The notes under the pieces were generated by a model. The model was not told the origin of the DNA. It did not search any database and saw nothing but the letters and a program-made list of their open reading frames with translations. A stretch of 64,000 bases of DNA from Butyrivibrio fibrisolvens (GTDB taxonomy: Bacteria; Bacillota; Clostridia; Lachnospirales; Lachnospiraceae): NCBI RefSeq assembly GCF_023206215.1, contig NZ_CP065800.1, forward strand, positions 3,348,001 through 3,412,000, written 5' to 3'. A program made the translations under genes and the position numbers. This document shows positions 3,925-45,885 of the stretch, piece after piece (position 1 is the first letter of the stretch; each line of letters begins with the position of its first letter).

Positions 3925-3965
3925 CCTTTTGTCCTCCGGAATAATATGTTTACTACCTGTGACAG

Positions 3966-4724
3966 TTACATGATCTTACCAAAGTACCAACTGATAATTC
4001 TATCTCCGACAAGTATCGCAGTCATGACGCCTCCTGCCAGATACGGTCCAAGCGCTAGAACATGCCCTTTATGACTTACCCTCATACGGATTATGTGTAT
4101 GACACTTCCATATATACATCCTAGGAAAAAAGCAAGAATATTAAGCTTCCACCCTACAAGCAGCCCCGTTGCTGCCATAAGCTTTATGTCTCCGCCTCCA
4201 ATCCATCGCCCTTTTGATATCGTATACAAGATAAACAGGAAAAAGGCTACGGATACAAACCCCAGCAGATAATTTGCAAAATTTTTGTAATCTACCGCCA
4301 TCCTAATAATTCCAAGTATACATATAGTATAATTCAACCCAGCCGGAATTACCATTGTTCGATGATCTATAACTGATATTGCGATAAGCACGGACGCTGC
4401 AAGGCATATCAGTACTGTATCTACACTTATTCCATATACAATTCCAACCAGCACATATACTACTCCATTAAGAGCCTCTATAAGTGGGTATTGGACTGAG
4501 ATCTTCTGACCACAATTTCTGCATCTGCCTTTGTAGATGACCCATGATACGATAGGTATCAGATCAAACCATCTAAGCTGGTATCCGCAACTCATGCAGT
4601 GCGAACGTATCTTCACGAAATCTTCGTGTTTAGGAAGCCTGTAAATCAGAACATTTACAAAGCTGCCTATGACAATACCGTATACAAATAGTATTAAGTA
4701 GAATATCACTAGCATCCCCTGCAT
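3966..4724 (-). CDS. pilD: Prepilin peptidase / N-methyltransferase PilD
   Basis: A polytopic membrane aspartic protease of 252 residues that cleaves class III leaders and methylates the new N-terminus of pilins. The N-terminus has the GSFVNVLIYRLP signature, followed by two CxxC pairs (CMSCG and CRNCG) of the zinc-binding methylase loop. Further on is the GGGDIKLMAATG motif with the conserved catalytic Asp after GG; the first catalytic Asp is probably in VIDHRTMVIP. Its substrates include the prepilins at 1-588 and 37473-37988. The ATG at 4724 has GAGG six bases upstream. A GTG at 4736 overlapping the previous stop codon (GTGA) is an alternative. It is translationally coupled or nearly so to the upstream EAL gene. 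Confidence 0.93.
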   Translation of the reverse strand: MQGMLVIFYLILFVYGIVIGSFVNVLIYRLPKHEDFVKIRSHCMSCGYQLRWFDLIPIVSWVIYKGRCRNCGQKISVQYPLIEALNGVVYVLVGIVYGISVDTVLICLAASVLIAISVIDHRTMVIPAGLNYTICILGIIRMAVDYKNFANYLLGFVSVAFFLFILYTISKGRWIGGGDIKLMAATGLLVGWKLNILAFFLGCIYGSVIHIIRMRVSHKGHVLALGPYLAGGVMTAILVGDRIISWYFGKIM

Positions 4725-4732
4725 ATTAGTCC

Positions 4733-6682
4733 TCACTTTTTCTTGGAAAAGTATTTTCTAAGATCGCTGATAGGCACAGGCTTTGCATAATGGAATCCCT
4801 GAATATAGTCAAAGCCATGAGTGATACTATAATCCTTGTGAGCATCGGACTCTACGCCTTCTACGAGGGTATTGATTCCGCTGCTTTTCAAGGTTTCTAT
4901 CATATTTGAGACAATGCCGTCCATACGCTCATCATCTATTGACTGATACAAAAGGGTTTTATCGAACTTAATGATCCTGAACGGAAGGTCTATGACTCTT
5001 GCCATAGCCGAATATCCTGTTCCAAAGTCATCAAGATAGAAAGATACACCCTTTTCCCTTAACAGATACATGTTGTTCCTAAGTTTGTTGCTGTCATCTG
5101 CAACTGCACTCTCTGTAAGCTCAAGTCTGATCTTTTGTGGCTCAACATCATATCGCTGAAGGATATTTAGGATCTCATCTGCAAGTCCCGGAAGCGTGAA
5201 CTCTGATGCAGAGCAGTTGATACTGATGCATTGGAATTCATACTCTTTTTCCAATTCTTTGAGTTCCTTGCAAACCTTACTGAGCATTATAAGAGTCAGA
5301 ACATGTATACTGTCTGTCTCTTCTGCGATCGGTATGAAGAGCCCCGGACTTATAATCTGACCATCAAGCTCAAGTCGCATAAGAGCTTCCGCAGTTCTGA
5401 AGGATTCTGATTCTACCTCATATATAGGCTGTGCGTAGCATACAACCCTTGCATCATCCATATCCCTTTTAAATCTTATGTCCATGAGCTCCTGTTCTAT
5501 TCTGTATCTCTCCTGGAACTTCTCGTTATCTTCTTTGGTCGCTACATATCTAAAATTCTCAAGAGGATTAAGCTTCTTTCTTATAATCTGATTGACCATC
5601 TCTCTGGCCATTGCTATAGATCTGATCTGTTCAAAGCAAGGAAGAACTACCATTATGATCCTTGCAAGTTCATCTATCTCACTAAGCCTTTTTTCTGCAA
5701 GATCTGCAAGGGCGTCAAGTATCTTGTCATGCTCATCACTTTGCATGGCTTCATATATGAAGGTGTAGGTTCCGGCGCTTTGCTTGTATATATGCAGGTT
5801 TGGATATTTGGATTCTGCCATCCTGCAATAATCTATGATTGTTTCATAGCCTATCCCCATCTTGGAAGACGGGCCGGATATATCCGATCTGTTAAAAGAT
5901 GGAATGATAAGATAACCGATGTAAAATGGCTTTTTTAATAAGATATCGTCTTCGAAACGACTTTCAAGTGAGTACGTATTCTGAAGCCCCAGAATCTCAT
6001 CATATGGATTGGAATGGAATAATATATAGAATATACACATCGGAACAACATAAGTCATCGCGATTATGATGTCATCTGTATTGGACCTTTGTACCAGAAG
6101 CAGCAGAACATTAATTGGATATACTGCAAATATGATAGTCCTTACAACCTTGGGCATATCCTTGGTAACAGTAAGTGCGAAGATCATAGAAGCAGTACTG
6201 CTGACCATACCGCAGTTGACCATCTTGATGACAAAAAATGAGATATCTGCAACCTCTCCTCCATAGTATGAAAACATAGTGCCTTTGAAGATAGCCACCA
6301 TGCAATAGAAAACCATGAAGAATACAAAGCAGAAGCACAATATCCTGTAGTTTCCTTCCTTGCTCCTGTTCCTATAGGGAAGTGTACACAGATACATAGA
6401 CAAATTGAATAATATGAAAGAATACACAAAGATATATGCAATCATAACACATTGGAGCATTACGATTCCATATATTTCGATATGAGAAGCCATATATACG
6501 ATCAGAACCATAAGAAAGGGAGCCACTATACAGAAGAACATTCCGAAGAAATCATAAACATAGCTGGAAGTCCTACGTGGCTTAGTTCCGATCATCATTA
6601 TAAAAAAAATAAATGAAACTATAAAAAATGCTATTTCAACATCTACGTTATATGCCAAATTCCCGATAAGTGCAGATAGCAT
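4733..6682 (-). CDS. Membrane-bound EAL-domain c-di-GMP phosphodiesterase
   Basis: 649 residues. The N-terminal ~225 residues form about seven or more membrane helices. The middle (about 230-400) has no GGDEF signature; it may be a degenerate GGDEF or a linker. Residues ~410-645 are an EAL domain with the catalytic motifs intact: AEALMRL, LELTES, LDDFGTGYSA, IKFDKTLL, VEGVES and QGFHYAKP. It should hydrolyse c-di-GMP to pGpG at the membrane. It is the first gene of the T4P operon as seen here and overlaps the region of the pilD start, so it is probably co-translated with pilus genes. The start has a GGTGAG site just upstream. The signal sensed by the membrane part is unknown. Confidence 0.9.
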   Translation of the reverse strand: MLSALIGNLAYNVDVEIAFFIVSFIFFIMMIGTKPRRTSSYVYDFFGMFFCIVAPFLMVLIVYMASHIEIYGIVMLQCVMIAYIFVYSFILFNLSMYLCTLPYRNRSKEGNYRILCFCFVFFMVFYCMVAIFKGTMFSYYGGEVADISFFVIKMVNCGMVSSTASMIFALTVTKDMPKVVRTIIFAVYPINVLLLLVQRSNTDDIIIAMTYVVPMCIFYILFHSNPYDEILGLQNTYSLESRFEDDILLKKPFYIGYLIIPSFNRSDISGPSSKMGIGYETIIDYCRMAESKYPNLHIYKQSAGTYTFIYEAMQSDEHDKILDALADLAEKRLSEIDELARIIMVVLPCFEQIRSIAMAREMVNQIIRKKLNPLENFRYVATKEDNEKFQERYRIEQELMDIRFKRDMDDARVVCYAQPIYEVESESFRTAEALMRLELDGQIISPGLFIPIAEETDSIHVLTLIMLSKVCKELKELEKEYEFQCISINCSASEFTLPGLADEILNILQRYDVEPQKIRLELTESAVADDSNKLRNNMYLLREKGVSFYLDDFGTGYSAMARVIDLPFRIIKFDKTLLYQSIDDERMDGIVSNMIETLKSSGINTLVEGVESDAHKDYSITHGFDYIQGFHYAKPVPISDLRKYFSKKK

Positions 6683-17378: not shown

Positions 17379-19118
17379 ATGAAAAAGAACACATCTGGCA
17401 TTTCAATGTTAGTAATCATAACATGCTGTATATTTATAGCATGTTTTTTGATCATGCCTGTTTTCAATAGTATCATTACCCCAAATGCAAATATTAATTC
17501 AGATGGCAATTCACAAAGTGCCTACAGTTATGATTCGAATTCTTTCACTCATGTCCATGCGTCAGGTTCAAATGATACTATAATTCCATTTAACATCCTA
17601 TGCATATGTTCTTATAACTATTCTTATGATACTGTTCCACAGCACATACAAGGGATAGAAGCAGGACTTGGCGATCTTTCATATGAGATCACATATGAAA
17701 ATATGGATGCCAAAAGATTCTACGAAGCAGATGATATCCAGGAGTTCTATAACTATCTTTCTTATAAGATTGATAAGATAGATGCACACTATGATCTTAT
17801 TTTCGTAATAGATGATACTGCACTTAGATTTGTGATCAATTACAGGAGCGAACTTTTTGGAGACGTTCCTGTAGTATTCATGGGTATCAATTCTGTTTCT
17901 GATGCCACAACTTCTGCTGCTCTTCACAATGTTACAGGTATATCAGAGACTCTTGATTTCGAATCCAATTATGATCTTATGAAGGCTCTTTTTCCTGACA
18001 GAAATGAGATCGTAGTATTATGTGACGGATCCAATACAAGTTCCGGCGAGTATGTGGAATTTTTGAAGTTCACGGAAAATCACCCCGAGATCAGCTATAG
18101 AGTCCTTAATGCTTCATATTATACGCAAAAAGGGCTAAAAAGGGCTCTGTCAGAGCTTGATAATAACAATATAATCTACTATCTTGAATTCTCTCAGGAT
18201 GGAGATGGCAACCTGTATACTATCAACTCAGCTTCCTCTTTTGTTGATAATAATGTTACAAATGTGCCTGTGATAAGACTTACTATGGCCAATTGTACAA
18301 ACAACATCTTAGGTGGTATATCGTATTCGTATACACATGCCGGAGAAGTTGCAGGCAAGATGGCAGGCAAGATATTAAATGGTGTAAGTGCTGACAATAT
18401 CGCGCTTATCAGTGATACCATAACCGAAAGCTACTTCTACCAGGACAAGATGGATGAGTTCGGTATCAAGTCATCCCAGCTTCCGGCAGATAGCTATATT
18501 GCCAACGAAAGATTCAATCCTATCCGCTACTATCAGGAGAATGCTCTTATCCTGAACCTGATAATACTTATTATCATACTTTTGTTCATAATAATAGTCA
18601 TTCAGGCCAAGGCCAACCGCCAGCACGAACGTATGCTCAACAACGATTATCTGACTCAGATACCTAACCGTCATTATATCAATCAGAAGATCGATCAGCT
18701 CAATTCTACTTTCACGCCTTACGGACTCGCCATGATAGACGTAGATCACTTCAAAGACATCAATGATACCTATGGACACCTTGTGGGTGATGAAGTTCTC
18801 GTGGAGATAAGTACCAGATTTTCAAGTATAGCATCCAAATATATCACCTTCGCCAGAATAGGTGGTGATGAATTCATGATGCTCATAACAGGTCCCGAAA
18901 TAGACAATGCCGACAATATATGCCGGCAGATTCAAAATATAATACGTAATGCAGTTGTCATTAATAAGAAAAAACTGGAAATAACCCTTAGCATAGGCTG
19001 TGCTCTGTATCCTTCTGATACCAACGATCCTACTCAGATCATGGCTCTGGCCGACAGGGCTCTGTATTATGTAAAAGAAAACGGAAGAAACGATTATAAA
19101 CTATTCGGCGACCTGTAA
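17379..19118 (+). CDS. Diguanylate cyclase with extracytoplasmic ABC-substrate-binding-like sensor
   Basis: 579 residues. A helix at about 10-30 anchors a large extracellular domain (about 65-350) resembling the ABC_sub_bind (PF04392) periplasmic-binding fold. A second helix near 390-412 leads to a cytoplasmic GGDEF domain. The active site reads ARIGGDEFMML with DYLTQIPNR and IDVDHFKDINDTYGH upstream, so it is probably an active cyclase. The RxxD inhibitory site is not seen at its usual place before GGDEF. A ligand outside the cell may control c-di-GMP synthesis. It is divergent from the M13 peptidase gene. Its 3' end overlaps by 18 bases the convergent gene for a sugar-binding lipoprotein. 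Confidence 0.88.
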   Translation: MKKNTSGISMLVIITCCIFIACFLIMPVFNSIITPNANINSDGNSQSAYSYDSNSFTHVHASGSNDTIIPFNILCICSYNYSYDTVPQHIQGIEAGLGDLSYEITYENMDAKRFYEADDIQEFYNYLSYKIDKIDAHYDLIFVIDDTALRFVINYRSELFGDVPVVFMGINSVSDATTSAALHNVTGISETLDFESNYDLMKALFPDRNEIVVLCDGSNTSSGEYVEFLKFTENHPEISYRVLNASYYTQKGLKRALSELDNNNIIYYLEFSQDGDGNLYTINSASSFVDNNVTNVPVIRLTMANCTNNILGGISYSYTHAGEVAGKMAGKILNGVSADNIALISDTITESYFYQDKMDEFGIKSSQLPADSYIANERFNPIRYYQENALILNLIILIIILLFIIIVIQAKANRQHERMLNNDYLTQIPNRHYINQKIDQLNSTFTPYGLAMIDVDHFKDINDTYGHLVGDEVLVEISTRFSSIASKYITFARIGGDEFMMLITGPEIDNADNICRQIQNIIRNAVVINKKKLEITLSIGCALYPSDTNDPTQIMALADRALYYVKENGRNDYKLFGDL

Positions 19119-20309
19119 GCTTCCGTCTTCAGATAGCACATATGTTCCGTAATTGTCTACCAGTTCCTGCACCATATTGTCACTTGTTATCTCTACAGGT
19201 TCAAGGAGAAATGCAGGAACTACTATCTTGCCATTATCATATGACTGGGTATCATAGACACATTCATAGTCAAGATTCCAGCTATCGATCAAGGATTGTG
19301 ACATCACTTCCCCATGATACAAAGAGTCTACGACCATGACAGTCACATAGGCTTCATATGCCAGATTCTTGTAAACATCCATAGACTGTCTTCCATCCAT
19401 AAGTCTGCGCAGGTTCTCTACATCACAGTCCTGACCTGTTATCACCACATCATTGCCACCATTATAACTGTCTCTGATCGCATCCTGTACTCCAATAGAT
19501 GTAGAATCATTGGAACACAGCACAGCATCAAGTTTTCTGTCACCGGAATAATAAGAACCTATCAGGATCTGAAATCTGACATTAGCAGTCTCTGTTGACC
19601 ACTGAGAAGTTGATACTGTATAGAAATCACACTGGCCTGAGGGAACATTCAAAGTCCCATTGTCTATATAGGGCCTTAAAACATCCATTGCTCCGTCAAA
19701 AAAGAATCTTGCATTATTATCAACAGAATCTCCTGCTGTAAACTCTATGTTATAGATCTTGCCTGTAACTTTATCAAGTTCCAGAGCATTCTTTATATAC
19801 TCTCCCTGAAGTCTTCCCACCTGATAATTGTCAAAAGATACATAAGCACTCACATACTCTGTGTTACATATGAGTCTGTCATAGGCAAAAACCGGGATCC
19901 CGGCTTCATAGGCTCTCTCCATGACTTTACCAAGAGACAGTCCATCAACCGCACCTATCACCAGCACATCAACACCATCATCTATCATCTCATAGATGGC
20001 GTCAATCTGAGTATCTATAAGGTTTCCGGCATAGCGCAGATCAACTTCATATCCAAGTGCTTCAAATGATGCTTTTAGATTGTTGCCATCACGGGTCCAT
20101 CTCTCAAGATACTGTGTGGGCATACTTATGCCTATTTTGTCTATGCCGTCTTCTGAGTGGGTATCGGCTATTCTTGTATCGTCTGTATCAGACTGTGCTG
20201 TATTATCCGGCGCGGAAGTCTTTGAAGCAGTCGAGCACGCTGACACCATAAGGCTTAATGTAATGGGAGCTATCAGATATCTTGTATAATGCCTATTAGA
20301 AAGTACCAT
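19101..20309 (-). CDS. Sugar-binding lipoprotein (ABC-type, ChvE/xylose-binding-like), solitary
   Basis: 402 residues with a lipoprotein signal: basic start, hydrophobic core and a Ser-Ala-Cys lipobox at about residue 25, then a Ser/Thr/Asp-rich linker. The mature part is a periplasmic-binding-protein fold of the ribose/xylose/ChvE type (KIGISMPTQ, AGIPVFAYDR, VSFDNYQVGR, CSNDSTSIGVQDAI, VITGQDCD). Such proteins deliver sugars to ABC importers or to receptors. No permease or ATPase gene is adjacent, so it may act with a distant transporter or as a ligand presenter. It converges with and overlaps the 3' end of the cyclase gene. AAAGGG lies 9 bases before the ATG. Confidence 0.88.
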   Translation of the reverse strand: MVLSNRHYTRYLIAPITLSLMVSACSTASKTSAPDNTAQSDTDDTRIADTHSEDGIDKIGISMPTQYLERWTRDGNNLKASFEALGYEVDLRYAGNLIDTQIDAIYEMIDDGVDVLVIGAVDGLSLGKVMERAYEAGIPVFAYDRLICNTEYVSAYVSFDNYQVGRLQGEYIKNALELDKVTGKIYNIEFTAGDSVDNNARFFFDGAMDVLRPYIDNGTLNVPSGQCDFYTVSTSQWSTETANVRFQILIGSYYSGDRKLDAVLCSNDSTSIGVQDAIRDSYNGGNDVVITGQDCDVENLRRLMDGRQSMDVYKNLAYEAYVTVMVVDSLYHGEVMSQSLIDSWNLDYECVYDTQSYDNGKIVVPAFLLEPVEITSDNMVQELVDNYGTYVLSEDGSLQVAE

Positions 20310-32526: not shown

Positions 32527-32850
32527 TCACTTGGTATCTTGCGGTGATATGTGTTCGAATAGATACTCTAGAACATCCTGTGTGAATCTCTTGGCTGTAA
32601 AGGCTACTACCCTTTGACCATTTTCTGACGGATCCTCACGTACTGCATCAGCGTACATGATAAGCGTCTCTGCTACTATGATCACACTTTTGCCCAAAAG
32701 AGAAGGAGTATCTTCAGGAACTATTATTGCTATACCAAGCGGAGAGATATTTTTTGTGGTTCCTATGTATTTATCAGCTGTATCCGGAAGTACTATAACG
32801 CTTTTACTTTCGTAATCTACTCTGTTTAACTGTCTTCTTTCTTTGATCAT
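32527..32850 (-). CDS. PilZ-domain c-di-GMP receptor
   Basis: 107 residues, essentially a lone PilZ domain. The RxxxR motif is in ERRQLNRVDY and the NxSxxG motif in KNISPLGIAI; both are needed for binding c-di-GMP. The remainder forms the beta barrel and a C-terminal helix (QDVLEYLFEHIS). The ATG at 32850 is chosen for GGAGGG 8 bases upstream. It is the first gene of a probable two-gene unit with the large secreted protein, suggesting c-di-GMP control of that protein's export, display or partner. Confidence 0.85.
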   Translation of the reverse strand: MIKERRQLNRVDYESKSVIVLPDTADKYIGTTKNISPLGIAIIVPEDTPSLLGKSVIIVAETLIMYADAVREDPSENGQRVVAFTAKRFTQDVLEYLFEHISPQDTK

Positions 32851-33218
32851 CTTATCTTCCCTCCGACCACACACTAATAAACGATTTATTCTCTGTTTGT
32901 TGTATCATATTTCGGATATTATTTACAAATATTTAGTGTTTTATGATGATTTTTAATATATTTTGGAGTTTTCTGCCAATTCAGTATTATTACGAGTTTG
33001 GAACTTGTATACATATATTTAGTTTCCTTAAATTCTCACTATCTCCTAAAAACAACTCTGTAATAATCACTTTATTAAAATCTCAACTTCCAAAAATTAT
33101 TTTCCACAAATCAACCATTCCCTAAAAAACAGCTATTATAATCTTCTTCCAAAAGCAATAAAAAATCCTATCAGCCTCTAACCATCTGATGGGAATCGCA
33201 TATTTGTATTTGATTTCT
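32851..33218. other. AT-rich gene-free spacer
   Basis: About 370 bases upstream of the PilZ gene and downstream of the frameshifted EAL gene. No plausible gene, RNA or clear promoter was recognised. It must hold the PilZ promoter; the sequence is strongly AT-rich throughout. Confidence 0.5.
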
Positions 33219-33291
33219 AAAACTACCCACTTAGACGGGCCGGCATCCCCAAAGTCTTTACTGGGGCAGGCCTGTCCAAGTGGGTAGTTTT
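33219..33291. repeat. Short palindromic element (C1)
   Basis: AAAACTACCCACTTAGACGG pairs with its near complement ending TGGGTAGTTTT; an inner CCCC...GGGG pair surrounds AAAGTCTTTACT. It starts 2 bases after the stop of the EAL gene and is followed by TTTT on the minus strand, so it can act as a terminator. The same module is found at 43372-43445 and twice in the long element at 20454-20872. Confidence 0.85.
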
Positions 33292-33293
33292 AT

Positions 33294-33689
33294 TTATTTA
33301 TCCAATACTTCTTCAAATTCTTTTTCAGGCATCGGTTTATAGAAATAGTAGCCTTGTATGTAGTCGCAGTCGTAGCTTTTAAGGAAATCAAGCTGCTCTT
33401 TGGTCTCAACACCCTCTGCAGTAACCGTAGCACCTATCATATGGGCAAGACCTATCGTAGTTATGATTATGGATTCTGCCTTTTCATTAATACCAATCTT
33501 TCTGATAAATCCCAGATCCAGCTTGATAATATCGAAATTGAAATCTTCAAGCATGGACAAGGAGCTCATTCCACTACCATAGTCATCCAAAAGTATCTTG
33601 ATGCCATACGACTGCATGTTGTTGAGATACTCCATAGACTTAACTTCAAGGTCCGTATATGCCGATTCAGTTACTTCAAACCTTACCAT
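33294..33689 (-). CDS. C-terminal half of EAL domain, 3' part of a frameshifted gene
   Basis: 131 codons in the frame beyond the break. It holds the second half of an EAL domain: VRFEVTES, LLDDYGSGMSS, IIKLDLGFI, TAEGVET and YIQGYYFYKP, all catalytically plausible. It has no ribosome site at the internal ATG. Adding one base at about 33717-33735 joins it in register to the upstream frame, giving FIES-x-M-K-R-INDLNINPS, exactly the length seen in the EAL protein at 4733. So this is not an independent gene; see the upstream fragment. Confidence 0.85.
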   Translation of the reverse strand: MVRFEVTESAYTDLEVKSMEYLNNMQSYGIKILLDDYGSGMSSLSMLEDFNFDIIKLDLGFIRKIGINEKAESIIITTIGLAHMIGATVTAEGVETKEQLDFLKSYDCDYIQGYYFYKPMPEKEFEEVLDK

Positions 33690-35659
33690 CGAAGGGTTGA
33701 TGTTAAGATCATTGATCCTTTCATAATACTTTCAATAAATAAAGTATCGTAGAAGTCTACCCTTGACAGGTTTATAGCACATGGAACCACTTTTTTCTTC
33801 TGATAAGCTCTCCTTGCTATAAGTTCCATGCCGCGATTGACTATAAAATTATCAAGAACCGATATCTTGCCTTCTGATTCTATGACCGGGATAAAAACTG
33901 CCGGAGATACCATACCAAAGTCCTTGTGATGCCATCTTATGAGCATCTCTGCACTGACTATCTCTCCGGTCTTAGCATCAACTATAGGCTGGTAATATGG
34001 TTCAAACTCATTCTCGTTCAGACCTCTTTCAAAATCCGCCAGAAGGAAACGCTGCTTAACATAATTTTCCTTCATAAAGTCATCATAATACGCATAAAGA
34101 AGACTTCCTTTGCCGGTCTTGATGTTCTTCTCAGCAAGCTTGGCACCGGCTATGAGATGAGCTACATCCATATTGGAATTATGTATAGAGAAGATTCCAC
34201 AACGGATCTCATAGTTATATTCCTTGTTCTCTATCCTGAACACCTGATTGCACAGCGCTTTGAGGTTTTCTTCGCTCAGGTTCTTATCCTCTGTGATAAA
34301 CACAAAGTGATCACTTTCAAGTCTTCCCATGATGACAGGCTTTAGATATTGTCTGATAACATCCCTTGTCTGGAATATTACAAGGTCACCATTCTTATCA
34401 CCAAACAGTTCATTGACAGCCTTAAATCCATTGACATTGGTATATACCAGTGAAAAGTGTCCAAGTGGTGATATCTCAGATATAAAGAGCCTTGCTCTAT
34501 CCATGAATCCCGTTCTTGTATACTCATCTGTCATCCAGTCATGATCTATTACAGTCGTAACATCAAGGAACATAAATAAAAACCAGTCAGGATATCCAGG
34601 AACCTCTTTTACCCTGATATTCTTGGCACGTCTTCCAAGCGATGTATCTATATGAACCGTTCGTACGAAATTGCCTCTTTCTGCAAGCTCATCTCTGATA
34701 AAAGACAAGTCGCTTTCATTGACGAAGGCATCTCTCTCATCATCTACTATCCTCTGAGCTATCCTGAAAAAGATATCCTTGTACGTAAGCTTGGCTCCTT
34801 CAAATACGCTAAGAAGCTTTTCATCAAGATGATATATCTCACAGACATCATTGGTCGTATTGACAGTCATAACGATGTCATACCCTTCTGATAGAAGCGC
34901 TCTGACAACGGGCTGTTCTATAACGCCCATATAAGGGATGATCGGACCTTCCTTGAGGGGTGATATAGTTCCGTCTTCGATGACCTGTCCTACTCCTTTG
35001 AATTTGGTCTTGCCGTTTTTGGATTTAAAATAGCTGCCGTCTTCGACCAGGTAGAATCTCCTGCCATAACTGTCAGGAAGTACGATATCTTCTATGAATC
35101 TAAGGCCGTCAATAACTGCATCCTTCATAGTCTTGGCATGAGGAATCATGTCAATATTGGTCAGATCGAGTCCATCAGTAAAGCGGACATAGTTAGGATC
35201 TGCAGCTTCGCCTTCAAGTTCCGGCATAAGATATACATCATATGCAGCATTAATAGAACCGGCACTAAGTCCTATGATTATGCCGGGATAGTCTGTCAGC
35301 GCATCTTTGAGTCCTATACGTTTCATGAAAGCCAGCTGCGTAGGCGCATGACCGCCTCCCATATATATGACATCAGACCAGACGATAAGGCCTTTGAGGG
35401 CATCATTACAGTTATCATCTAGTGTCTTAACTTCTGCCACTTTAAGATCTTTGTATTCAAAGGCGTCGATCACTTGTTGTATCTGGTTTTCATTGTCTTT
35501 GGTAAGTGTGGGATCTGCCGGCACGAAGAGAACATTGGCAGAATCTGGCCATTCTTTTTTCAGATCATCAAAAAATCCATAACAATCCTCAGGCGGTGTT
35601 TTCTTATATTCGCCCGGTTCCTGATATGGGATAAAACTACTTGTAAGGTATAAAACCAT
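33683..35659 (-). CDS. Peptidase S51 - GGDEF(degenerate) - EAL fusion, 5' part of a frameshifted gene
   Basis: 658 residues in this frame, ending in nine aberrant residues after a frameshift; intact length would be about 788. Residues 1-235 resemble peptidase S51 (dipeptidase E): YMGGGHAPTQL, the Ser nucleophile in GLSAGSINAA and a His in DMIPHAKT. A sensor-like segment (about 290-395) follows, then a GGDEF domain whose active site reads RLESDHF instead of GGDEF, hence inactive, then EAL with YYQPIVDAKTG and AEMLIRW. The protein would be a c-di-GMP phosphodiesterase controlled by, or tied to, a small-peptide hydrolase fold. I know of no standard family with this order. It is divergent from the PAS-GGDEF gene. 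Confidence 0.85.
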   Translation of the reverse strand: MVLYLTSSFIPYQEPGEYKKTPPEDCYGFFDDLKKEWPDSANVLFVPADPTLTKDNENQIQQVIDAFEYKDLKVAEVKTLDDNCNDALKGLIVWSDVIYMGGGHAPTQLAFMKRIGLKDALTDYPGIIIGLSAGSINAAYDVYLMPELEGEAADPNYVRFTDGLDLTNIDMIPHAKTMKDAVIDGLRFIEDIVLPDSYGRRFYLVEDGSYFKSKNGKTKFKGVGQVIEDGTISPLKEGPIIPYMGVIEQPVVRALLSEGYDIVMTVNTTNDVCEIYHLDEKLLSVFEGAKLTYKDIFFRIAQRIVDDERDAFVNESDLSFIRDELAERGNFVRTVHIDTSLGRRAKNIRVKEVPGYPDWFLFMFLDVTTVIDHDWMTDEYTRTGFMDRARLFISEISPLGHFSLVYTNVNGFKAVNELFGDKNGDLVIFQTRDVIRQYLKPVIMGRLESDHFVFITEDKNLSEENLKALCNQVFRIENKEYNYEIRCGIFSIHNSNMDVAHLIAGAKLAEKNIKTGKGSLLYAYYDDFMKENYVKQRFLLADFERGLNENEFEPYYQPIVDAKTGEIVSAEMLIRWHHKDFGMVSPAVFIPVIESEGKISVLDNFIVNRGMELIARRAYQKKKVVPCAINLSRVDFYDTLFIESIMKGSMILTSTLRW

Positions 35660-35898
35660 ATATTCTCTCCGCTAAAGATGTTATCTGTCCGGTAACTTGA
35701 TTAACGATTCTTCATAGATATTAATATTGTATCACGTATTATAATATACGTCTTCTAATTATAAAAAAACTATAGCTTTAATTAATTCAGGCACAAACAA
35801 GATGCTTTCTTATCGTATTTGTAATATCATTACAAACGTTTTTAGTGTATAATAATAATTGGAAGTATTGTGTAAAAAAAGGATTCATGAGGTTAAGT

Positions 35899-37263
35899 AT
35901 GAGCAGAATCAAACGCTATTATGTTGAGATAGACAGCAACTGTCAGGTTCTTAAATGCAGTAATGACTTTCTTGTATATATAGGCAGGAAAGAGCTTCTT
36001 AATATTGAGAGTATTATCAAGGATAGCGATATCAATAATCTTAAAGATGCTATCTCTTCGCTTGAGAAAGGGGACAATACTCTTGTAGTTTTTCGCACAG
36101 TCTGCCAAGATGGTAGACTTAACTGGATGTCTGCGAACGTACATAGATCCAAACATGATGCTTCTATTATAAAGCTCGACATCTACGATCTTCATTCCTT
36201 TGAGATAGACAAGGCAGAAGGCTATTACGACGAGATGACAGGGCTTTTGTCCAAAAGTGCTATAACGGATCATGCCAAAAGGCTGATGGAACAGACTAAT
36301 ACTCCGCCATTTTATTTTTTCCTGATGGATATTGATAATTTCAAATCTATCAATGACACATATGGTCACATGAAGGGCGATGATGTTATAGTCGAAGTTG
36401 CAGGTATACTAAAAAAATGTGTCGGTGACAAAGGAGTTGTCGGACGTATCGGCGGAGATGAGTTTCTTATGATACTGGAAAAGATTCATACAGAACCGGA
36501 ACTTCGCGATGTCCTTAGGAATATAAGATATGATGTCAGGGAAAAATATGCTGACGAAGACAACAACTATACTATAACCACTTCTCTTGGCGGAGCCCTG
36601 TTCCCAACAGACGCCTCCAATTATGAGGATATGTTCAAGCTTGCCGACAAGATGCTATATATAGCTAAAGCCAAAGGTCGTGATCGGTATATCATATACA
36701 CACCGTCTGTTCACGGCGATGCCAAAGTTGATACAGAGGTTGTGACAATCACACAAAGGGCGATGCAGAATCGTATCAAGAATGCTCTTATCATGGATCT
36801 TATGGAGGGTTTCCTTCTAAATAATAAGATATCTCTAAGAGACGCTTTTAATAAAGTAATAGAAACTTATATGCTGGATACTGTCTATATTGTAGACAAA
36901 AAAACAGGTCGTTCTAACTTCGGAATATCGCGTGATGGAAAGGATGTTGCTATTGATCTGTCAAGTCTTAATCCTTCTGACTATCAGCCTTTATTCGAGA
37001 CATATCCTATCAAGGTCATCAATATGTATGATCTTCAGAAGGCCAATTATCTGAAGTTCTCTGAATTCATGCTTCTTAATAGTTTCAGGATCATTGTAGT
37101 CTATTATATGCGTAATGTCCCCGATGGCGGATATCTTATGTATGTAAGCAGAGTTAACAGCAACTGCAGATTCTCAGAGACCGACTTCTCTGATCTTATC
37201 TACTTCTCAAGGATGCTGGAACTAAGCGGGAAGATGCAAACAGGTGGACCCTTTGCAGAATAA
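35899..37263 (+). CDS. PAS-GGDEF diguanylate cyclase with C-terminal extra domain
   Basis: 454 residues. Residues 1-115 look like a PAS sensor (YVEIDSNCQVLKCSNDFL). GGDEF follows (about 125-285) with the intact motif GRIGGDEFLMIL, MDIDNFKSINDTYGHMKG and a normal metal Asp, so it should make c-di-GMP. The last 155 residues are an extra domain, perhaps GAF-like. The ATG at 35899 has GAGG 6 bases upstream; an ATG at 35887 is an alternative. The last few codons (Thr-Gly-Gly-Pro-Phe-Ala-Glu-stop) lie inside a half copy of the long palindrome family, which seems to have supplied the C-terminus. Cytoplasmic, no membrane helix. Confidence 0.88.
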   Translation: MSRIKRYYVEIDSNCQVLKCSNDFLVYIGRKELLNIESIIKDSDINNLKDAISSLEKGDNTLVVFRTVCQDGRLNWMSANVHRSKHDASIIKLDIYDLHSFEIDKAEGYYDEMTGLLSKSAITDHAKRLMEQTNTPPFYFFLMDIDNFKSINDTYGHMKGDDVIVEVAGILKKCVGDKGVVGRIGGDEFLMILEKIHTEPELRDVLRNIRYDVREKYADEDNNYTITTSLGGALFPTDASNYEDMFKLADKMLYIAKAKGRDRYIIYTPSVHGDAKVDTEVVTITQRAMQNRIKNALIMDLMEGFLLNNKISLRDAFNKVIETYMLDTVYIVDKKTGRSNFGISRDGKDVAIDLSSLNPSDYQPLFETYPIKVINMYDLQKANYLKFSEFMLLNSFRIIVVYYMRNVPDGGYLMYVSRVNSNCRFSETDFSDLIYFSRMLELSGKMQTGGPFAE

Positions 37264-37472: not shown

Positions 37473-37988
37473 TTATTCGCCTTTAGTTGTAGATACACTG
37501 CCCTTTGCCATGTAGTTAGCAAAATCATCGCTGCCTGTACCATACTGAATATCAACTGAACCATCTGCTTCAAGAGTAAATGTTATAGAATACTCTGTCC
37601 ATGATGTACGGCTCTTACATGTTATATCAGAAGTATTACCATATCCTGCAGCTTTAAGTGCAGCTGTTATTACAGCAGCTCCGGTTTCATCTGTACTAAA
37701 TCCGGCGCTTGTAACTTTAACTATACCCTTGCTATTCTTAGTCCAAGAAGAGATATCATAGCTAGGATCAGCAACATATGTCTGAACTGCAGATACGATA
37801 CTTGTAGCATTAGTAGCATCTGTTGAATTTCTGGATCTTTCAACATACTGTAAGAACTGAGGTGCAAGTACAGCTACCAGGATAGCCATGATAGCAATTA
37901 CGATAATAAGCTCAACAAGTGAAAATCCCTTGTTATCTTCTTCATTGTTTTCTGTGTTGTTTTTGTAGTTGCGCATGAATTTGATCAT
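37473..37988 (-). CDS. Type IV pilin (major pilin candidate)
   Basis: 171 residues. A charged leader ends in NKG, then FSLVELIIVIAIMAILVAVL gives Phe +1, Glu +5 and the N-terminal polymerisation helix. The C-terminal domain is small and Ser/Thr/Gly-rich, with a single Cys, and ends SVSTTKGE. The ATG at 37988 is chosen for AGGAGAAGGAG just upstream; the open frame runs further up into the leader but has no such site. It follows pilC and pilB on the same strand but has its own consensus promoter at 38206-38234 and its own terminator, as expected for a highly expressed major pilin. Confidence 0.93.
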   Translation of the reverse strand: MIKFMRNYKNNTENNEEDNKGFSLVELIIVIAIMAILVAVLAPQFLQYVERSRNSTDATNATSIVSAVQTYVADPSYDISSWTKNSKGIVKVTSAGFSTDETGAAVITAALKAAGYGNTSDITCKSRTSWTEYSITFTLEADGSVDIQYGTGSDDFANYMAKGSVSTTKGE

Positions 37989-38205
37989 TTGTTTTTTCTC
38001 CTTCTCCTGCTGGTACATGCCGCAGGTGTCAAACCCGCCGTAATTCCTTTTACACGGCACTCTTCATTTCTTACCCGTACTATCAGTCGTATCGGTCTTT
38101 CATAAAAATCCAAACTGCAATATGGAATGAAGACATGCTATAGAAAACGTATATATCATATATTTGAATCAGATTTACATTTTCTTTTGTCTTCGCGCAT
38201 GATTT
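37989..38205 (-). promoter_or_regulatory. Long structured 5' leader of the pilin mRNA
   Basis: From the promoter the leader runs about 210 bases. It can form GCCGTGTAA/ATTACGGC at about 38031-38052 and CCTGC/GCAGG at about 38007-38027, the latter directly before the ribosome site. The fold could control translation. I cannot match it by eye to class I or II c-di-GMP riboswitches. Confidence 0.4.
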
Positions 38206-38234
38206 ATATTATTACCACCTCCCCGTTTTGTCAA
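38206..38234 (-). promoter_or_regulatory. Pilin promoter
   Basis: TTGACA (38234-38229), 17 bases, TAATAT (38211-38206) on the minus strand: a near-perfect sigma-A promoter between the end of pilC and the pilin gene. Confidence 0.8.
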
Positions 38235-38277
38235 TACATAATTTTGGAAACTTTTTCACGTTATTTAGTTTTTATGT

Positions 38278-39489
38278 TTATAGATTATCAAGTGACTGAT
38301 ACATGGTCACCATTGGTGACATAATAGCTGCAATAAGGAAGCCTACTACTCCTGCAAGGACTATGATGATCATAGGTTCCATAGCTGCCATAAGAGCTGC
38401 AGTTGCGGATTCTACTTCCTGGTCATAGTACTCGGCTAGCTTTTCAAGCATCTCATCTGTAGAACCGGACTCTTCTCCTATCCTTATCATGTGATACATC
38501 ATAGGTGGGAACATGTTAGTATTTTCAAGGGCCAGTGACATAGGCTGACCGGCTATTACGGCATCTTTGGTCTCATTAAGAGCATTCTTATATAAGACAT
38601 TGTCCATAGTCTTAGCTGTGATATCCAGTGAATCCACTATAGTTACACCGGATGCAAAAAGGGTCGACATAGTTCGTGACAGGTTAGAACAGGCTTTCTT
38701 CTGAGTCAGATCTCCTATTATAGGAAGCTTCATCTGAAGTCTTCCAAGTGTCAGCTGGCCTACAGGAGTAGAGCTAAACCACTTGAAGAAGATGATAACA
38801 GCTGCTGCCACAGCTATTATCAGATACCACTTGGATATTACGAAGTCGCTCATCCGTACTACCAATTTAGTGATAGCAGGAAGTTCTGTTCCCAGCTGAT
38901 CGAACATGTCCGTATATGACGGGATTACGACTACAAGCATTACTCCTACTACGCCTATAGCTACGATAAGGACGATGATAGGATATACCATGGCCTTTTT
39001 GACCATATCTTCTACCATGGCAGTTTTCTCAAGCTGAACAGCCATTCTCTCAAAGGCCATATCAAGGTTACCTGACGCTTCTCCGGCGCCAACTGTAGTT
39101 ATCAGAAGATTTGGGAAGATCTTCTTGTGCTTCTCCATAGCAGTTGTCAGGGTCTCGCCCTTTTCAATATCCGTAACCATCTCCCTGATGGCACTCGCAA
39201 GGGCCTTGTTTTCAGTCTGTTCGGACAACAGCTGCATGTTCTGAATGATAGGAACTCCGGCCTTGGATATACTCACAAACTGCCTACAGAACATAGCAAG
39301 TTCTTTGGTCTTAACACCTCCCACTTCAAAGTTTATATCTCTGGTCAAAAGATTCTGACTTTCAACTTTGACAGGTGTTAAGCCTTTAAACTTGAGTTCC
39401 CTAAGAACATATTCACGGCTGTCGCCGTCCATACTGCCTTTAACTTGTTTTCCCGAAGCATCAAATGCAACATATCCAAATGAAGGCAT
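38278..39489 (-). CDS. pilC: Type IV pilus inner-membrane platform protein PilC
   Basis: 403 residues with two repeats of the T2SSF domain: MFCRQFVSISKAGVPIIQNM in the first and LSRTMSTLFASGVTIVDSLD in the second, each with GEASGNLD or GEESGSTD-type motifs. Three or so membrane helices include the C-terminal one (MIIIVLAGVVGFLIAAIMSP). The platform couples the PilB motor to pilin insertion. The start lies 44 bases after the pilB stop, so they are co-transcribed. The family length (about 400) fits. Confidence 0.95.
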   Translation of the reverse strand: MPSFGYVAFDASGKQVKGSMDGDSREYVLRELKFKGLTPVKVESQNLLTRDINFEVGGVKTKELAMFCRQFVSISKAGVPIIQNMQLLSEQTENKALASAIREMVTDIEKGETLTTAMEKHKKIFPNLLITTVGAGEASGNLDMAFERMAVQLEKTAMVEDMVKKAMVYPIIVLIVAIGVVGVMLVVVIPSYTDMFDQLGTELPAITKLVVRMSDFVISKWYLIIAVAAAVIIFFKWFSSTPVGQLTLGRLQMKLPIIGDLTQKKACSNLSRTMSTLFASGVTIVDSLDITAKTMDNVLYKNALNETKDAVIAGQPMSLALENTNMFPPMMYHMIRIGEESGSTDEMLEKLAEYYDQEVESATAALMAAMEPMIIIVLAGVVGFLIAAIMSPMVTMYQSLDNL

Positions 39490-39533
39490 GGTATTCCTTT
39501 CCCTATAGAATCATCATACTTTCTATATATTTG

Positions 39534-41225
39534 CTATACATCAAACGAAACCTTCTTCATCTCATCAACTGTAGTGATTCCTTCAAGAACATATTTGGTA
39601 GCACTCATTCTGAGCGTCTTCATGCCTTCCTTGAGCGCCTGATTCTTGATCTCATCTGCAGTTCCTTTTCTCTCTATTATCAATTTGAGGTCATGCGTAA
39701 CTTCCATGATCTCATACACACCGGTACGTCCTGCAAATCCGGTACCGCTGCATTTAGGGCATCCTACTCTCTTGTATAGAGTAAGGGGTTTAGCAGGGTC
39801 TACGCCCAGTAGATTTTTTTCCTGCTCAGAAGCTTCATATGGCTGCTTGCAGTCAGGGCACAGGCGTCTTACAAGTCTCTGGGCTATGATACCTATAACA
39901 GAGTCAGCGATAAGATAAGCTTCAAGTCCCATGTCTTCAAGTCTTGTAACTGTGCTGGCTGCCGAATTGGTATGAAGTGTCGATACTACAAGGTGACCTG
40001 TGATAGATGCCTGAACCGCTATAGAAGCTGTCTCTCTATCTCTTATCTCACCTATCATGATGATATCCGGGTCCTGACGCAGGATAGATCTAAGTGCTGA
40101 GGCAAAAGAGAGTTCTGCCTTAGGATTGACCTGAACCTGATTAATGCCGTTGATATTAGCTTCCACAGGATCTTCGACAGTTACTATGTTAACGTCTTCT
40201 CTGTTCAGCTCTGAAAGAGCTGTATAAAGGGTCGTTGATTTACCGGATCCTGTAGGTCCTGTAACCAGAAGTATTCCATTTGGATTGGACAAAATTCTGT
40301 CAAATACTGTCATCTCATCAGGCTTAAGTCCCAGCTGATCTTTACTTCTGTTAAGAGCCTGTTTGGAGGCAAGTCGCATTACGACTTTTTCTCCGTATAC
40401 GGTTGGAAGGGTGGATACACGGATATCGTACTCAAGCTTATCAACTATCTGTGTCATACGTCCGTCAAGGGGTTTTCTCTTCTCAGATATATCCATCCCG
40501 CTGACGATCTTGATACGGGTGACTATAGCACCAAGCAGGTTATTGTTATAATTGGCTCTTTCGTACAACGCGCCGTCTATTCTGAACCTGATACGAAGAT
40601 TCCTTGCACCGGGCTCTATATGTATATCTGATGCGCGCTGACGCACAGCTGACTCTATCATGGTGGTAACCAGCTGTACTATAGGTGAATTGGTAACTTC
40701 CGCAGTCTCCTGATTGATCTCTTCCTGTACATGGGTCCTTTCCTTGGCATACTGCTCTGCTGCATTCTTGAGATCTGTATTGCCATAATACTTATCAAGC
40801 GCCAGCATGATGCTCTGGGACGTGCTAAGTACAGGCTCTATAGACAGATTGGTAACGATTCCTATATCATCGATCGCTACTGTGTCCATAGGGTCTGACA
40901 TGGCAAGGTGCAGGGTATTGGGAGCACCCGGTTTATATTCAAACGGTATAACCTTGTGTTTTCTAAGGATCTGGGGCGGGACCATGTTAAGAATGTCATC
41001 CGGAATCTCTATAAGCTGCAGGTTGACAATTCCAAGACCCATCTGATTACTTAAAGCTGTTGCAAGCTGTTCACCCGTAACGAAGCCGTTCTCAACCAGG
41101 AGTTCTCCAAGCCTTTTTCCGCTGCTTTTCTGAAGAGCAAGGGCTTCATCCAGTTTTTCCTGAGTTATGAAATTCTCATTTAAGAGACATTCTCCGATCC
41201 TGATACGCTTTCTGATGAAAGCCAT
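39534..41225 (-). CDS. pilB: Type IV pilus assembly ATPase PilB
   Basis: 563 residues. N-terminal GspE N-domain (IGECLLNENFITQEKLDEAL), then the ATPase with Walker A GPTGSGKST, Asp box, Walker B region IIMIGEIRDRETA and His box (SIAVQASITGHLVVSTLHTN). A zinc finger (CPDCKQPYE and CPKCSGTGFAGRTG) lies near the C-terminus. This is the extension motor of the pilus. No pilT (retraction) gene is in the window. It heads a block with pilC and the pilin, with two small genes upstream on the same strand. Confidence 0.96.
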   Translation of the reverse strand: MAFIRKRIRIGECLLNENFITQEKLDEALALQKSSGKRLGELLVENGFVTGEQLATALSNQMGLGIVNLQLIEIPDDILNMVPPQILRKHKVIPFEYKPGAPNTLHLAMSDPMDTVAIDDIGIVTNLSIEPVLSTSQSIMLALDKYYGNTDLKNAAEQYAKERTHVQEEINQETAEVTNSPIVQLVTTMIESAVRQRASDIHIEPGARNLRIRFRIDGALYERANYNNNLLGAIVTRIKIVSGMDISEKRKPLDGRMTQIVDKLEYDIRVSTLPTVYGEKVVMRLASKQALNRSKDQLGLKPDEMTVFDRILSNPNGILLVTGPTGSGKSTTLYTALSELNREDVNIVTVEDPVEANINGINQVQVNPKAELSFASALRSILRQDPDIIMIGEIRDRETASIAVQASITGHLVVSTLHTNSAASTVTRLEDMGLEAYLIADSVIGIIAQRLVRRLCPDCKQPYEASEQEKNLLGVDPAKPLTLYKRVGCPKCSGTGFAGRTGVYEIMEVTHDLKLIIERKGTADEIKNQALKEGMKTLRMSATKYVLEGITTVDEMKKVSFDV

Positions 41226-44670: not shown

Positions 44671-45435
44671 TTATTCTGCATATGTTTTCTTTCTTGAAGC
44701 CGGTACAAATGTAACATTCTTAAGGATTACGCTGATCCTCTTATATACAAATACTGTAATAATAGAATCAATACCGCCCTTGATAAGATTGAGAGGAACT
44801 ACACAGTACAATACAAGTGTCCAGATACTTGTAACGTTATTATTAGCTTCAGCACCCATTCCTACAAATGCATCTATAGGCATTCCGTACAGTGCGCTAT
44901 ACGCAGGGAGCAGGTAGAATGCGTTCATAAGGCTTCCTACAATAGTGATAACAAGTGTTCCGATAATACAGGATATAAGCGCCATAGTGCGGGTCTTTTT
45001 GAAAGTATAGATAATAGATGCCGGAAGTATGAAGCAGCATCCTATAACAAAATTGGCAAGTTCTCCTACAAATGCTGTAGAAGTTCCTCTAATAACAAGC
45101 TCTAAGAGAATCTTCACAAACTCGATCATAACGCCTGCCATCGGCCCAAATGAAAATGCACCGATAAGAGCAGGAAGATCAGAAAGATCCAGCTTATAGA
45201 AAGATGGTGCAAAAGGAAGCGCAATCTCGAACATCATAAGAACAACAGATATAGCTGCAAATGTTCCTATAACTACTACCTTTCTGGTGCTGAGCATGGG
45301 CTCTTTAATTCCGTTGATCTTCTGTGCCAGCTTCTCACATACGATAGCGATTGCAAAGGCCGCTGCGATGATGATCGCAAAACCTATCAAATACTCTACA
45401 TTTTCTGCAATACTAGCAAATAATCCATTGGTCAT
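44671..45435 (-). CDS. ribU: Riboflavin ECF transporter S component RibU
   Basis: 254 residues with six membrane helices of the ECF S-component type. The family stretch DLSDLPALIGAFSFGPMAG is present, and an N-terminal extension with a helix (about 15-35) precedes it. It binds riboflavin and works with a shared EcfA/A'/T module encoded elsewhere. The upstream FMN riboswitch confirms the substrate. The ATG at 45435 is chosen for GGAGG 8 bases before. Confidence 0.93.
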   Translation of the reverse strand: MTNGLFASIAENVEYLIGFAIIIAAAFAIAIVCEKLAQKINGIKEPMLSTRKVVVIGTFAAISVVLMMFEIALPFAPSFYKLDLSDLPALIGAFSFGPMAGVMIEFVKILLELVIRGTSTAFVGELANFVIGCCFILPASIIYTFKKTRTMALISCIIGTLVITIVGSLMNAFYLLPAYSALYGMPIDAFVGMGAEANNNVTSIWTLVLYCVVPLNLIKGGIDSIITVFVYKRISVILKNVTFVPASRKKTYAE

Positions 45436-45620
45436 TTCTTTATCCCTCCTATGTCTGTACACATGTGTTATTTTCGGGAATTATTGGTTTTACGCCTGCG
45501 TTGTGAATTTAGGAATCCGGATGAATGCGTATCCTTAGAAGCGTGATTTTTGTGGGCATTTTCATCTTTTGCCAGCATAAATTCACAGTTTGGGACATAT
45601 CGGACTTTTGTGTTACATAC

Positions 45621-45650: not shown

Positions 45651-45689
45651 ACAATTCATCCATAATCCTACAGATCATAAGATCTGCAT

Positions 45690-45797
45690 ATCCTTCTTCC
45701 ATCCAGACTTTACTGTCGGTACCGGAATCACACCGGTTCATGCTATCAAAGCTCGCGGACTATACCGCCGGTAGGGAATCTCACCCAACCCCGAAGT
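45690..45797 (-). ncRNA. FMN riboswitch (RFN element)
   Basis: On the minus strand the conserved RFN pieces appear in order: CTTCGGGGTTGGGTGAGATT, CCCTACCGGCGGTATAGTCC, GCGAGC, CCGGTGTGATTCCGGTACCG, ACAGTAAAGTCTGGATGGAA and GAAGG. It is followed by an intrinsic terminator and then ribU, a standard transcription-attenuation arrangement. The 255-base leader after the aptamer is longer than usual. Confidence 0.95.
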
Positions 45798-45885
45798 TTT
45801 ATTTTGTTTTCAAATGCTATGTTAATACGCAATGTAATATGAGTCAATAGGTCAAATAAATTTTTTGCAACTTATTTTTGTTCAA

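What the first reader, a model, noticed from the sequence alone, without database searches (positions are those of the whole stretch)
33294..35659. Peptidase S51 domain fused to GGDEF-EAL
A dipeptidase E-like domain that keeps the Ser (GLSAGSIN) and a His (IPHA) precedes a degenerate GGDEF and a catalytic EAL domain. S51 enzymes also include cyanophycinases. The order suggests that a short acidic peptide or its cleavage regulates c-di-GMP breakdown, a kind of input I do not know to be described.
Basis: partly seen in the sequence, partly recalled or inferred. Interest (0 to 1): 0.75.

Follow-up and report, generated by a model that had tools for sequence, protein, structure and literature searches.

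The report
Peptidase-like sensor on c-di-GMP phosphodiesterase
A family of rumen and gut bacterial proteins carries a peptidase-shaped domain at the front of an enzyme that destroys the signal molecule cyclic di-GMP, and because many relatives have lost the peptidase's cutting residue but kept the rest of the site, the domain is probably used to sense a small molecule rather than to cut one.

Summary

The fusion is a family: 101 proteins, 33 of 79 genomes of the window's genus, 5 of 299 in a family-wide sample, each another genus. Ser132 is missing in 23 of 101 fused proteins (21 Gly, 1 Asn, 1 Cys) but in 0 of 112 standalone S51 relatives; the tree needs 11 changes, 8 forced by well-supported branches. 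The 23 keep the complete EAL catalytic set, H104 and D207; 22 keep H174. So cleavage is not required in those lineages. Best reading: a peptidase fold recruited, and repeatedly deactivated, as ligand-binding input of a c-di-GMP phosphodiesterase. Ligand unknown.

The parts
33683..35659 (-). ORF 1, 658 aa: S51 domain, PAS-like region, degenerate GGDEF and the first part of EAL (profile 3-105 of 236); ends at a stop after the frame break
33294..33689 (-). ORF 2, 131 aa: remainder of the EAL domain (profile 120-236) in another frame
33715..33727 (-). Zone of the frame break (one base fewer than 8 aligned relatives)
   Evidence: open frames of relatives
34940..35659 (-). Peptidase S51 domain, residues 1-240
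   Evidence: Pfam; model pLDDT 95.6; PDB matches
35264..35266 (-). Codon AGT of Ser132, the would-be nucleophile (GLSAGS)
   Evidence: conservation
35138..35140 (-). Codon of His174 (IPHA), triad
   Evidence: 100 of 101
35039..35041 (-). Codon of Asp207 (VEDGSYF), third triad residue
   Evidence: 101 of 101
34562..34924 (-). PAS-like linker domain, residues 246-366 (no Pfam hit; inferred from the model and its alignment with PAS-GGDEF-EAL structures)
34118..34546 (-). Degenerate GGDEF domain, residues 372-514 (ESDHF in place of GGDEF)
33725..34036 (-). First part of the EAL domain, residues 542-645

Best explanation
The protein family is a c-di-GMP phosphodiesterase (EAL) whose input domain is a recruited S51 (peptidase E-like) fold. 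A small molecule, most likely an aspartyl or isoaspartyl compound of the kind S51 enzymes handle, binds the old active-site pocket. Binding is relayed through the PAS-like and degenerate GGDEF domains (which are not expected to make c-di-GMP) to the EAL domain, changing the rate of c-di-GMP breakdown. Cleavage of the ligand is not needed, since lineages that lost the nucleophile keep most of the pocket and the full EAL catalytic set; where Ser remains, slow cleavage may reset the signal. In this window the EAL domain is interrupted, so this copy as sequenced is not expected to work as a phosphodiesterase. Shown: domains, fold, triad residues, family, repeated Ser loss, intact EAL residues in the family. 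Inferred: binding, ligand class, relay, direction of regulation.
Against: No ligand, binding or activity data. 78 of 101 keep Ser, so catalysis may matter in most lineages. Ser-less members also show changes not seen in the 78 (G102 to S/D in 6 of 23, E147 to D/K in 7 of 23) and slightly faster S51 divergence relative to EAL (mean ratio 1.57 against 1.40), and P0076 lost both Ser and His, so some S51 domains may be decaying. One locus with Ser, L029, has Lys at H104. Gene neighbours are not conserved, giving no independent hint. The window copy is broken.
Confidence: 0.58

Rival explanations
1. Bifunctional enzyme: the S51 domain is an active aspartyl dipeptidase-like hydrolase in Ser-bearing members and its turnover or product controls the EAL domain; Ser-less members are secondary losses.
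For: Triad S132-H174-D207 resembles MccG S133-H168-D196 (PMC9239234, passages) and Orf2 S134-H170-D198 (PMC11078827, passages), both tested by mutation there; 78 of 101 keep Ser.
Against: 11 changes at the nucleophile, 8 forced by starred branches, without loss of EAL residues; the 112 standalone relatives examined never lose it.
Confidence: 0.22
2. The S51 domain is only a dimerisation or stability module that holds two EAL domains together; no ligand.
For: Ser dispensable; that EAL enzymes often work as dimers is recalled.
Against: H104, H174, D207 and E151 stay near-invariant in Ser-bearing and Ser-less members, which a mere dimer module would not need.
Confidence: 0.13
3. Decaying relic: a fused peptidase drifting to loss, with no role in signalling.
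For: Faster S51 divergence in Ser-less members; broken window copy.
Against: Fusion found whole in most of 101 proteins and in 5 genera (the window's own copy, one of the five, is broken); S51 less divergent than the PAS-like region between Ser-bearing pairs (35.2 against 42.6%) and about equal between Ser-less pairs (41.4 against 40.4%).
Confidence: 0.07

Closest known systems
Peptidase E / aspartyl dipeptidase (S51, e.g. Salmonella PepE, PDB 6a4r, 1fy2)
   Different: 18% identity; third triad residue Asp, not Glu; fused to a c-di-GMP enzyme; nucleophile absent in part of the family
MccG / clade V S51 peptidases (PMC9239234) and Streptomyces Orf2 (PMC11078827)
   Same: Ser-His-Asp triad
   Different: Clade placement not tested here; those are standalone proteins with shown activity
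Cyanophycinase (CphB, 3en0) and pseudo-CphB (7uqv)
   Different: No cyanophycin synthetase over the cut-off in this genome; no evidence of the substrate
Standalone Clostridia 'type 1 glutamine amidotransferase-like' / 'peptidase E' proteins (S51, about 245 aa)
   Same: About 35-45% identity, same GGH, SAG, PH and DGSY motifs
   Different: Not fused; Ser kept in 112 of 112 examined
PAS-GGDEF-EAL and GGDEF-EAL phosphodiesterases (PA0861 5xge, MorA 4rnh, DosP)
   Same: PAS-GGDEF-EAL order (5xge) and EAL motifs (MorA)
   Different: Their input domains (recalled: PAS, haem, membrane sensors) are not a peptidase fold

Membership tests
Peptidase family S51 | Pfam PF03575 above curated cut-off | tested here: met
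   46.5 vs 23.9 bits
Peptidase family S51 | S51 fold | tested here: met
Peptidase family S51 | Ser-His-Asp/Glu triad | tested here: met
   S132, H174, D207 in this copy by alignment; 23 of 101 relatives lack Ser. Geometry in the model was not measured
Peptidase family S51 | Peptidase activity | not testable with these tools
   -
Cyanophycinase | Cleaves cyanophycin | not testable with these tools
   -
Cyanophycinase | Cyanophycin synthetase in the same genome (supporting, not strictly defining) | tested here: not met
   0 of 12 matches over the cut-off of 850 bits; best 153.4
MccG (clade V S51) | Third triad residue Asp | tested here: met
   D207 in 101 of 101
MccG (clade V S51) | Position in the clade V tree; cleavage of isoaspartyl-nucleotides | not tested
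   no clade V sequence was fetched
EAL c-di-GMP phosphodiesterase | Complete EAL domain with catalytic residues E,N,E,D,D,K,E,E,Q (set recalled; motifs aligned to MorA) | tested here: met
   98 of 101 fused proteins; the other 3 have gaps at most of these columns (one reads Thr at the last). In the window copy the domain is cut by a frame break
Diguanylate cyclase | GG[D/E]EF motif | tested here: not met
   ESDHF and variants; 0 of 101 canonical, one row truncated there

The most novel reading that the evidence does not exclude
A peptidase fold has been turned, repeatedly and mostly by the same Ser-to-Gly step, into a non-cleaving receptor domain that tells the c-di-GMP network about an intracellular aspartyl or isoaspartyl compound (dipeptide, damaged-protein fragment, or aspartyl-nucleotide such as a processed microcin C-like antibiotic), making this a new class of second-messenger input.
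Probability: 0.3. Interest if true: 0.75.

Novelty: new variant of a known kind. Interest (0 to 1): 0.52.

Why it matters
c-di-GMP enzymes are sorted by their input domains, and for many the ligand is unknown (recalled). Here the input domain comes from a family with characterised substrates, so the ligand can be looked for directly, and natural Ser-bearing and Ser-less members form a ready-made test of binding against cleavage. It would also be a clear case of an enzyme being turned into a sensor many times inside one family.

Tried and rejected
Programmed frameshift at the break: rejected as unsupported; none of the 8 aligned relatives has the break, and the other 32 genus copies are open. 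Whether it is an assembly error or a real lesion cannot be told here.

Gene neighbourhood as a clue to the ligand: in 32 loci (window included; several have short flanks) the most widespread cluster of neighbouring ORFs of at least 90 aa occurs in 5; the divergent GGDEF gene is shared with L004 only.

Cyanophycin as ligand: no synthetase over the cut-off.

Full-length fold search was filled by EAL/GGDEF entries and said nothing on S51, so the domain was folded alone. A sequence search of the PDB with the full protein listed no S51 entry at E 0.01 (50 sequences); the profile found DR_1070 (6iru, E 6e-6).

Plasmid search: 0 records covering 80% of P0001 among the 5000 best (limit reached). Literature: peptidase S51 + GGDEF 0 papers, Peptidase_S51 + EAL 0, dipeptidase E + cyclic di-GMP 0, a five-term pseudoenzyme search 0; Butyrivibrio + c-di-GMP 6 papers, listing and abstract starts seen, none seems to bear on this; one search held 1,022 papers with two of three terms, 20 listed, none of those with 'peptidase S51'. 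led to the two papers cited, of which I saw passages only. Only open-licence papers are held.

Limits: the trees are 'quick' ones; one search left out 5 of 101 rows as short (P0025, P0040, P0077, P0085, P0091) and warns of long branches among the distant rows. The 112 standalone proteins are those under 300 aa among P0107-P0221; of 120 listed (272 found) I dropped 3 longer ones (P0181, P0214, P0219) and P0102-P0106. Read, P0102, P0103 and P0104 run on into the PAS-like region (cut fused proteins), P0106 looks like a chimera, and P0105 (261 aa, Ser kept) ends at the domain boundary; whether it is a split fused gene was not examined. One of the 112 has Asn at D207. One search used 35 of 101 fused and 36 standalone rows. 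Fusion in genus and family genomes was counted from open-frame length (the tally was typed by hand); EAL motifs were checked in 5 of these genomes only, the four other genera and G037 (of the five, L057 lacked the first EAL motif, L055 the last one and L058 the Ser motif, each as I wrote them). The script stopped with an error after the alignment, so its codon listing is incomplete. Confidence values are unchanged by this check.

Full report
What is in the sequence. The gene lies on the minus strand. The first ORF (35659-33683, 658 aa) carries Peptidase_S51 (46.5 bits against a cut-off of 23.9), GGDEF (40.7) and the first part of EAL (79.6); a second ORF (33689-33294, 131 aa) carries the rest of EAL (116.2). 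The two are in different frames. Aligned with eight relatives, the window lacks one base near 33715-33727. A near-identical intact protein, P0001 (788 aa; 100% identical over residues 1-245; cluster of 55 member sequences), is in the protein database. Among 33 fused copies in the genus, the window's is the only one without a frame of 786-833 aa.

Family and spread. A search with residues 1-245, restricted by length to fused-size proteins, gave 101 proteins, most of 780-830 aa. Titled records are Butyrivibrio and other Lachnospiraceae, with L022 labelled Clostridiaceae and L031 Clostridium sp.. In whole genomes, judged by open-frame length, 33 of 79 of the window's genus carry the fusion (20 of the 47 that are at least 90% complete and at most 5% contaminated), and 5 of 299 in a family-wide sample, the window's included, each from a different genus; in the four others the same open frame holds EAL motifs. 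Fourteen loci (L035-L048) carry the PAS-like-GGDEF-EAL core with no S51 in frame (L035 is preceded by an unrelated gene; L048 is cut by its contig end inside EAL). In a 78-row S51 tree the 35 fused rows form one group (support 92, unstarred) with one short row, P0105, nested among them. This fits one fusion event.

The nucleophile. Residue 132 is Ser in 78 of 101 fused proteins, Gly in 21, Asn in 1, Cys in 1. The standalone relatives examined keep Ser in 112 of 112. On a tree built without the S51 domain (96 of 101 rows, 22 without Ser), the trait needs 11 changes, at least 8 forced by starred branches. The count cannot tell loss from gain; the standalone relatives make loss the natural reading, with regain possible. 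In the 23 Ser-less proteins H104, E151 and D207 are kept in 23 and H174 in 22; G102 is changed in 6 and E147 in 7, changes not seen in the 78. All 23 keep the nine EAL residues; 75 of the 78 others do, and the other three have gaps there. Among 31 loci from titled genome records 4 lack Ser, the isolates FCS014 (Gly), MB2005 (Asn), AE3009 (Gly) and WCD3002 (Gly). One locus, L029, has Lys in place of H104.

EAL and GGDEF. ESDHF or close variants replace GGDEF (0 of 101 canonical), so no cyclase is expected. EAL aligns with MorA across its motifs (that these residues are catalytic is recalled). The genome has 19 EAL matches, two of them the halves of this gene.

How it may work. Most of the pocket is kept while the nucleophile is not, and the output domain stays complete. 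The simplest account is a ligand-binding input. S51 substrates known from the literature are Asp-X dipeptides, isoAsp-Leu, cyanophycin and isoaspartyl-nucleotides (PMC11078827 and PMC9239234, passages read), so an aspartyl or isoaspartyl compound is the first guess. The triad with Asp in third place is like MccG S133-H168-D196 and Orf2 S134-H170-D198. Other S51 fusions found on the way join it to GNAT acetyltransferase, RsmH-like (MraW) methyltransferase, PfkB kinase, nitroreductase, and APH plus GNAT domains. An MccE2-type GNAT and S51 MccG both disarm processed microcin C (PMC9239234, passages), so the GNAT fusions are a lead to aspartyl-nucleotides, no more.

Against this reading: no binding or activity is shown; 78 of 101 keep Ser; S51 divergence relative to EAL is a little higher in Ser-less pairs (1.57 against 1.40), which could be decay.

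Novelty. The parts are known; the combination and the repeated nucleophile loss were not found in print in the searches. I rate it a new variant of a known kind.

Noticed in passing
window 32527-32874 (-): Small PilZ-domain protein (PF07238, 24.1 bits, cut-off 22.5) just downstream of the S51 gene: a likely c-di-GMP receptor beside a phosphodiesterase.
   Followed up: partly
window 35845-37263 (+): Divergent gene with a full GGDEF domain (GGDEF motif intact, 132.5 bits) next to the S51-EAL gene; among 32 loci the pair is shared with L004 only.
   Followed up: partly
L002 1462-2907 (own genome C1 about 1,710,200): Second S51 fusion in the same genome, S51 plus a SAM-dependent methyltransferase domain, 481 aa.
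   Followed up: partly
L049, L050, L052, L054, P0214, P0219: S51 fused to RsmH-like (MraW) methyltransferase, PfkB kinase, APH plus GNAT, GNAT, nitroreductase, GNAT: the S51 domain is fused to many partners.
   Followed up: partly
window 1840-6682 and 37473-41225: Type IV pilus-like genes (names by eye, except the pilin N-methylation motif of 37473-38060), with an EAL protein at 4733-6682.
   Followed up: no
window 17379-20309: GGDEF protein with an ABC-type substrate-binding domain as likely sensor, next to a periplasmic binding protein gene on the other strand.
   Followed up: no
window 45687-45802 (-): FMN riboswitch (105.9 bits) upstream of a membrane protein at 44671-45462 that by eye looks like a riboflavin transporter.
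   Followed up: no
window 33210-33290 (-): Long inverted repeat ending in a T run right after the S51 gene, by eye a terminator.
   Followed up: no
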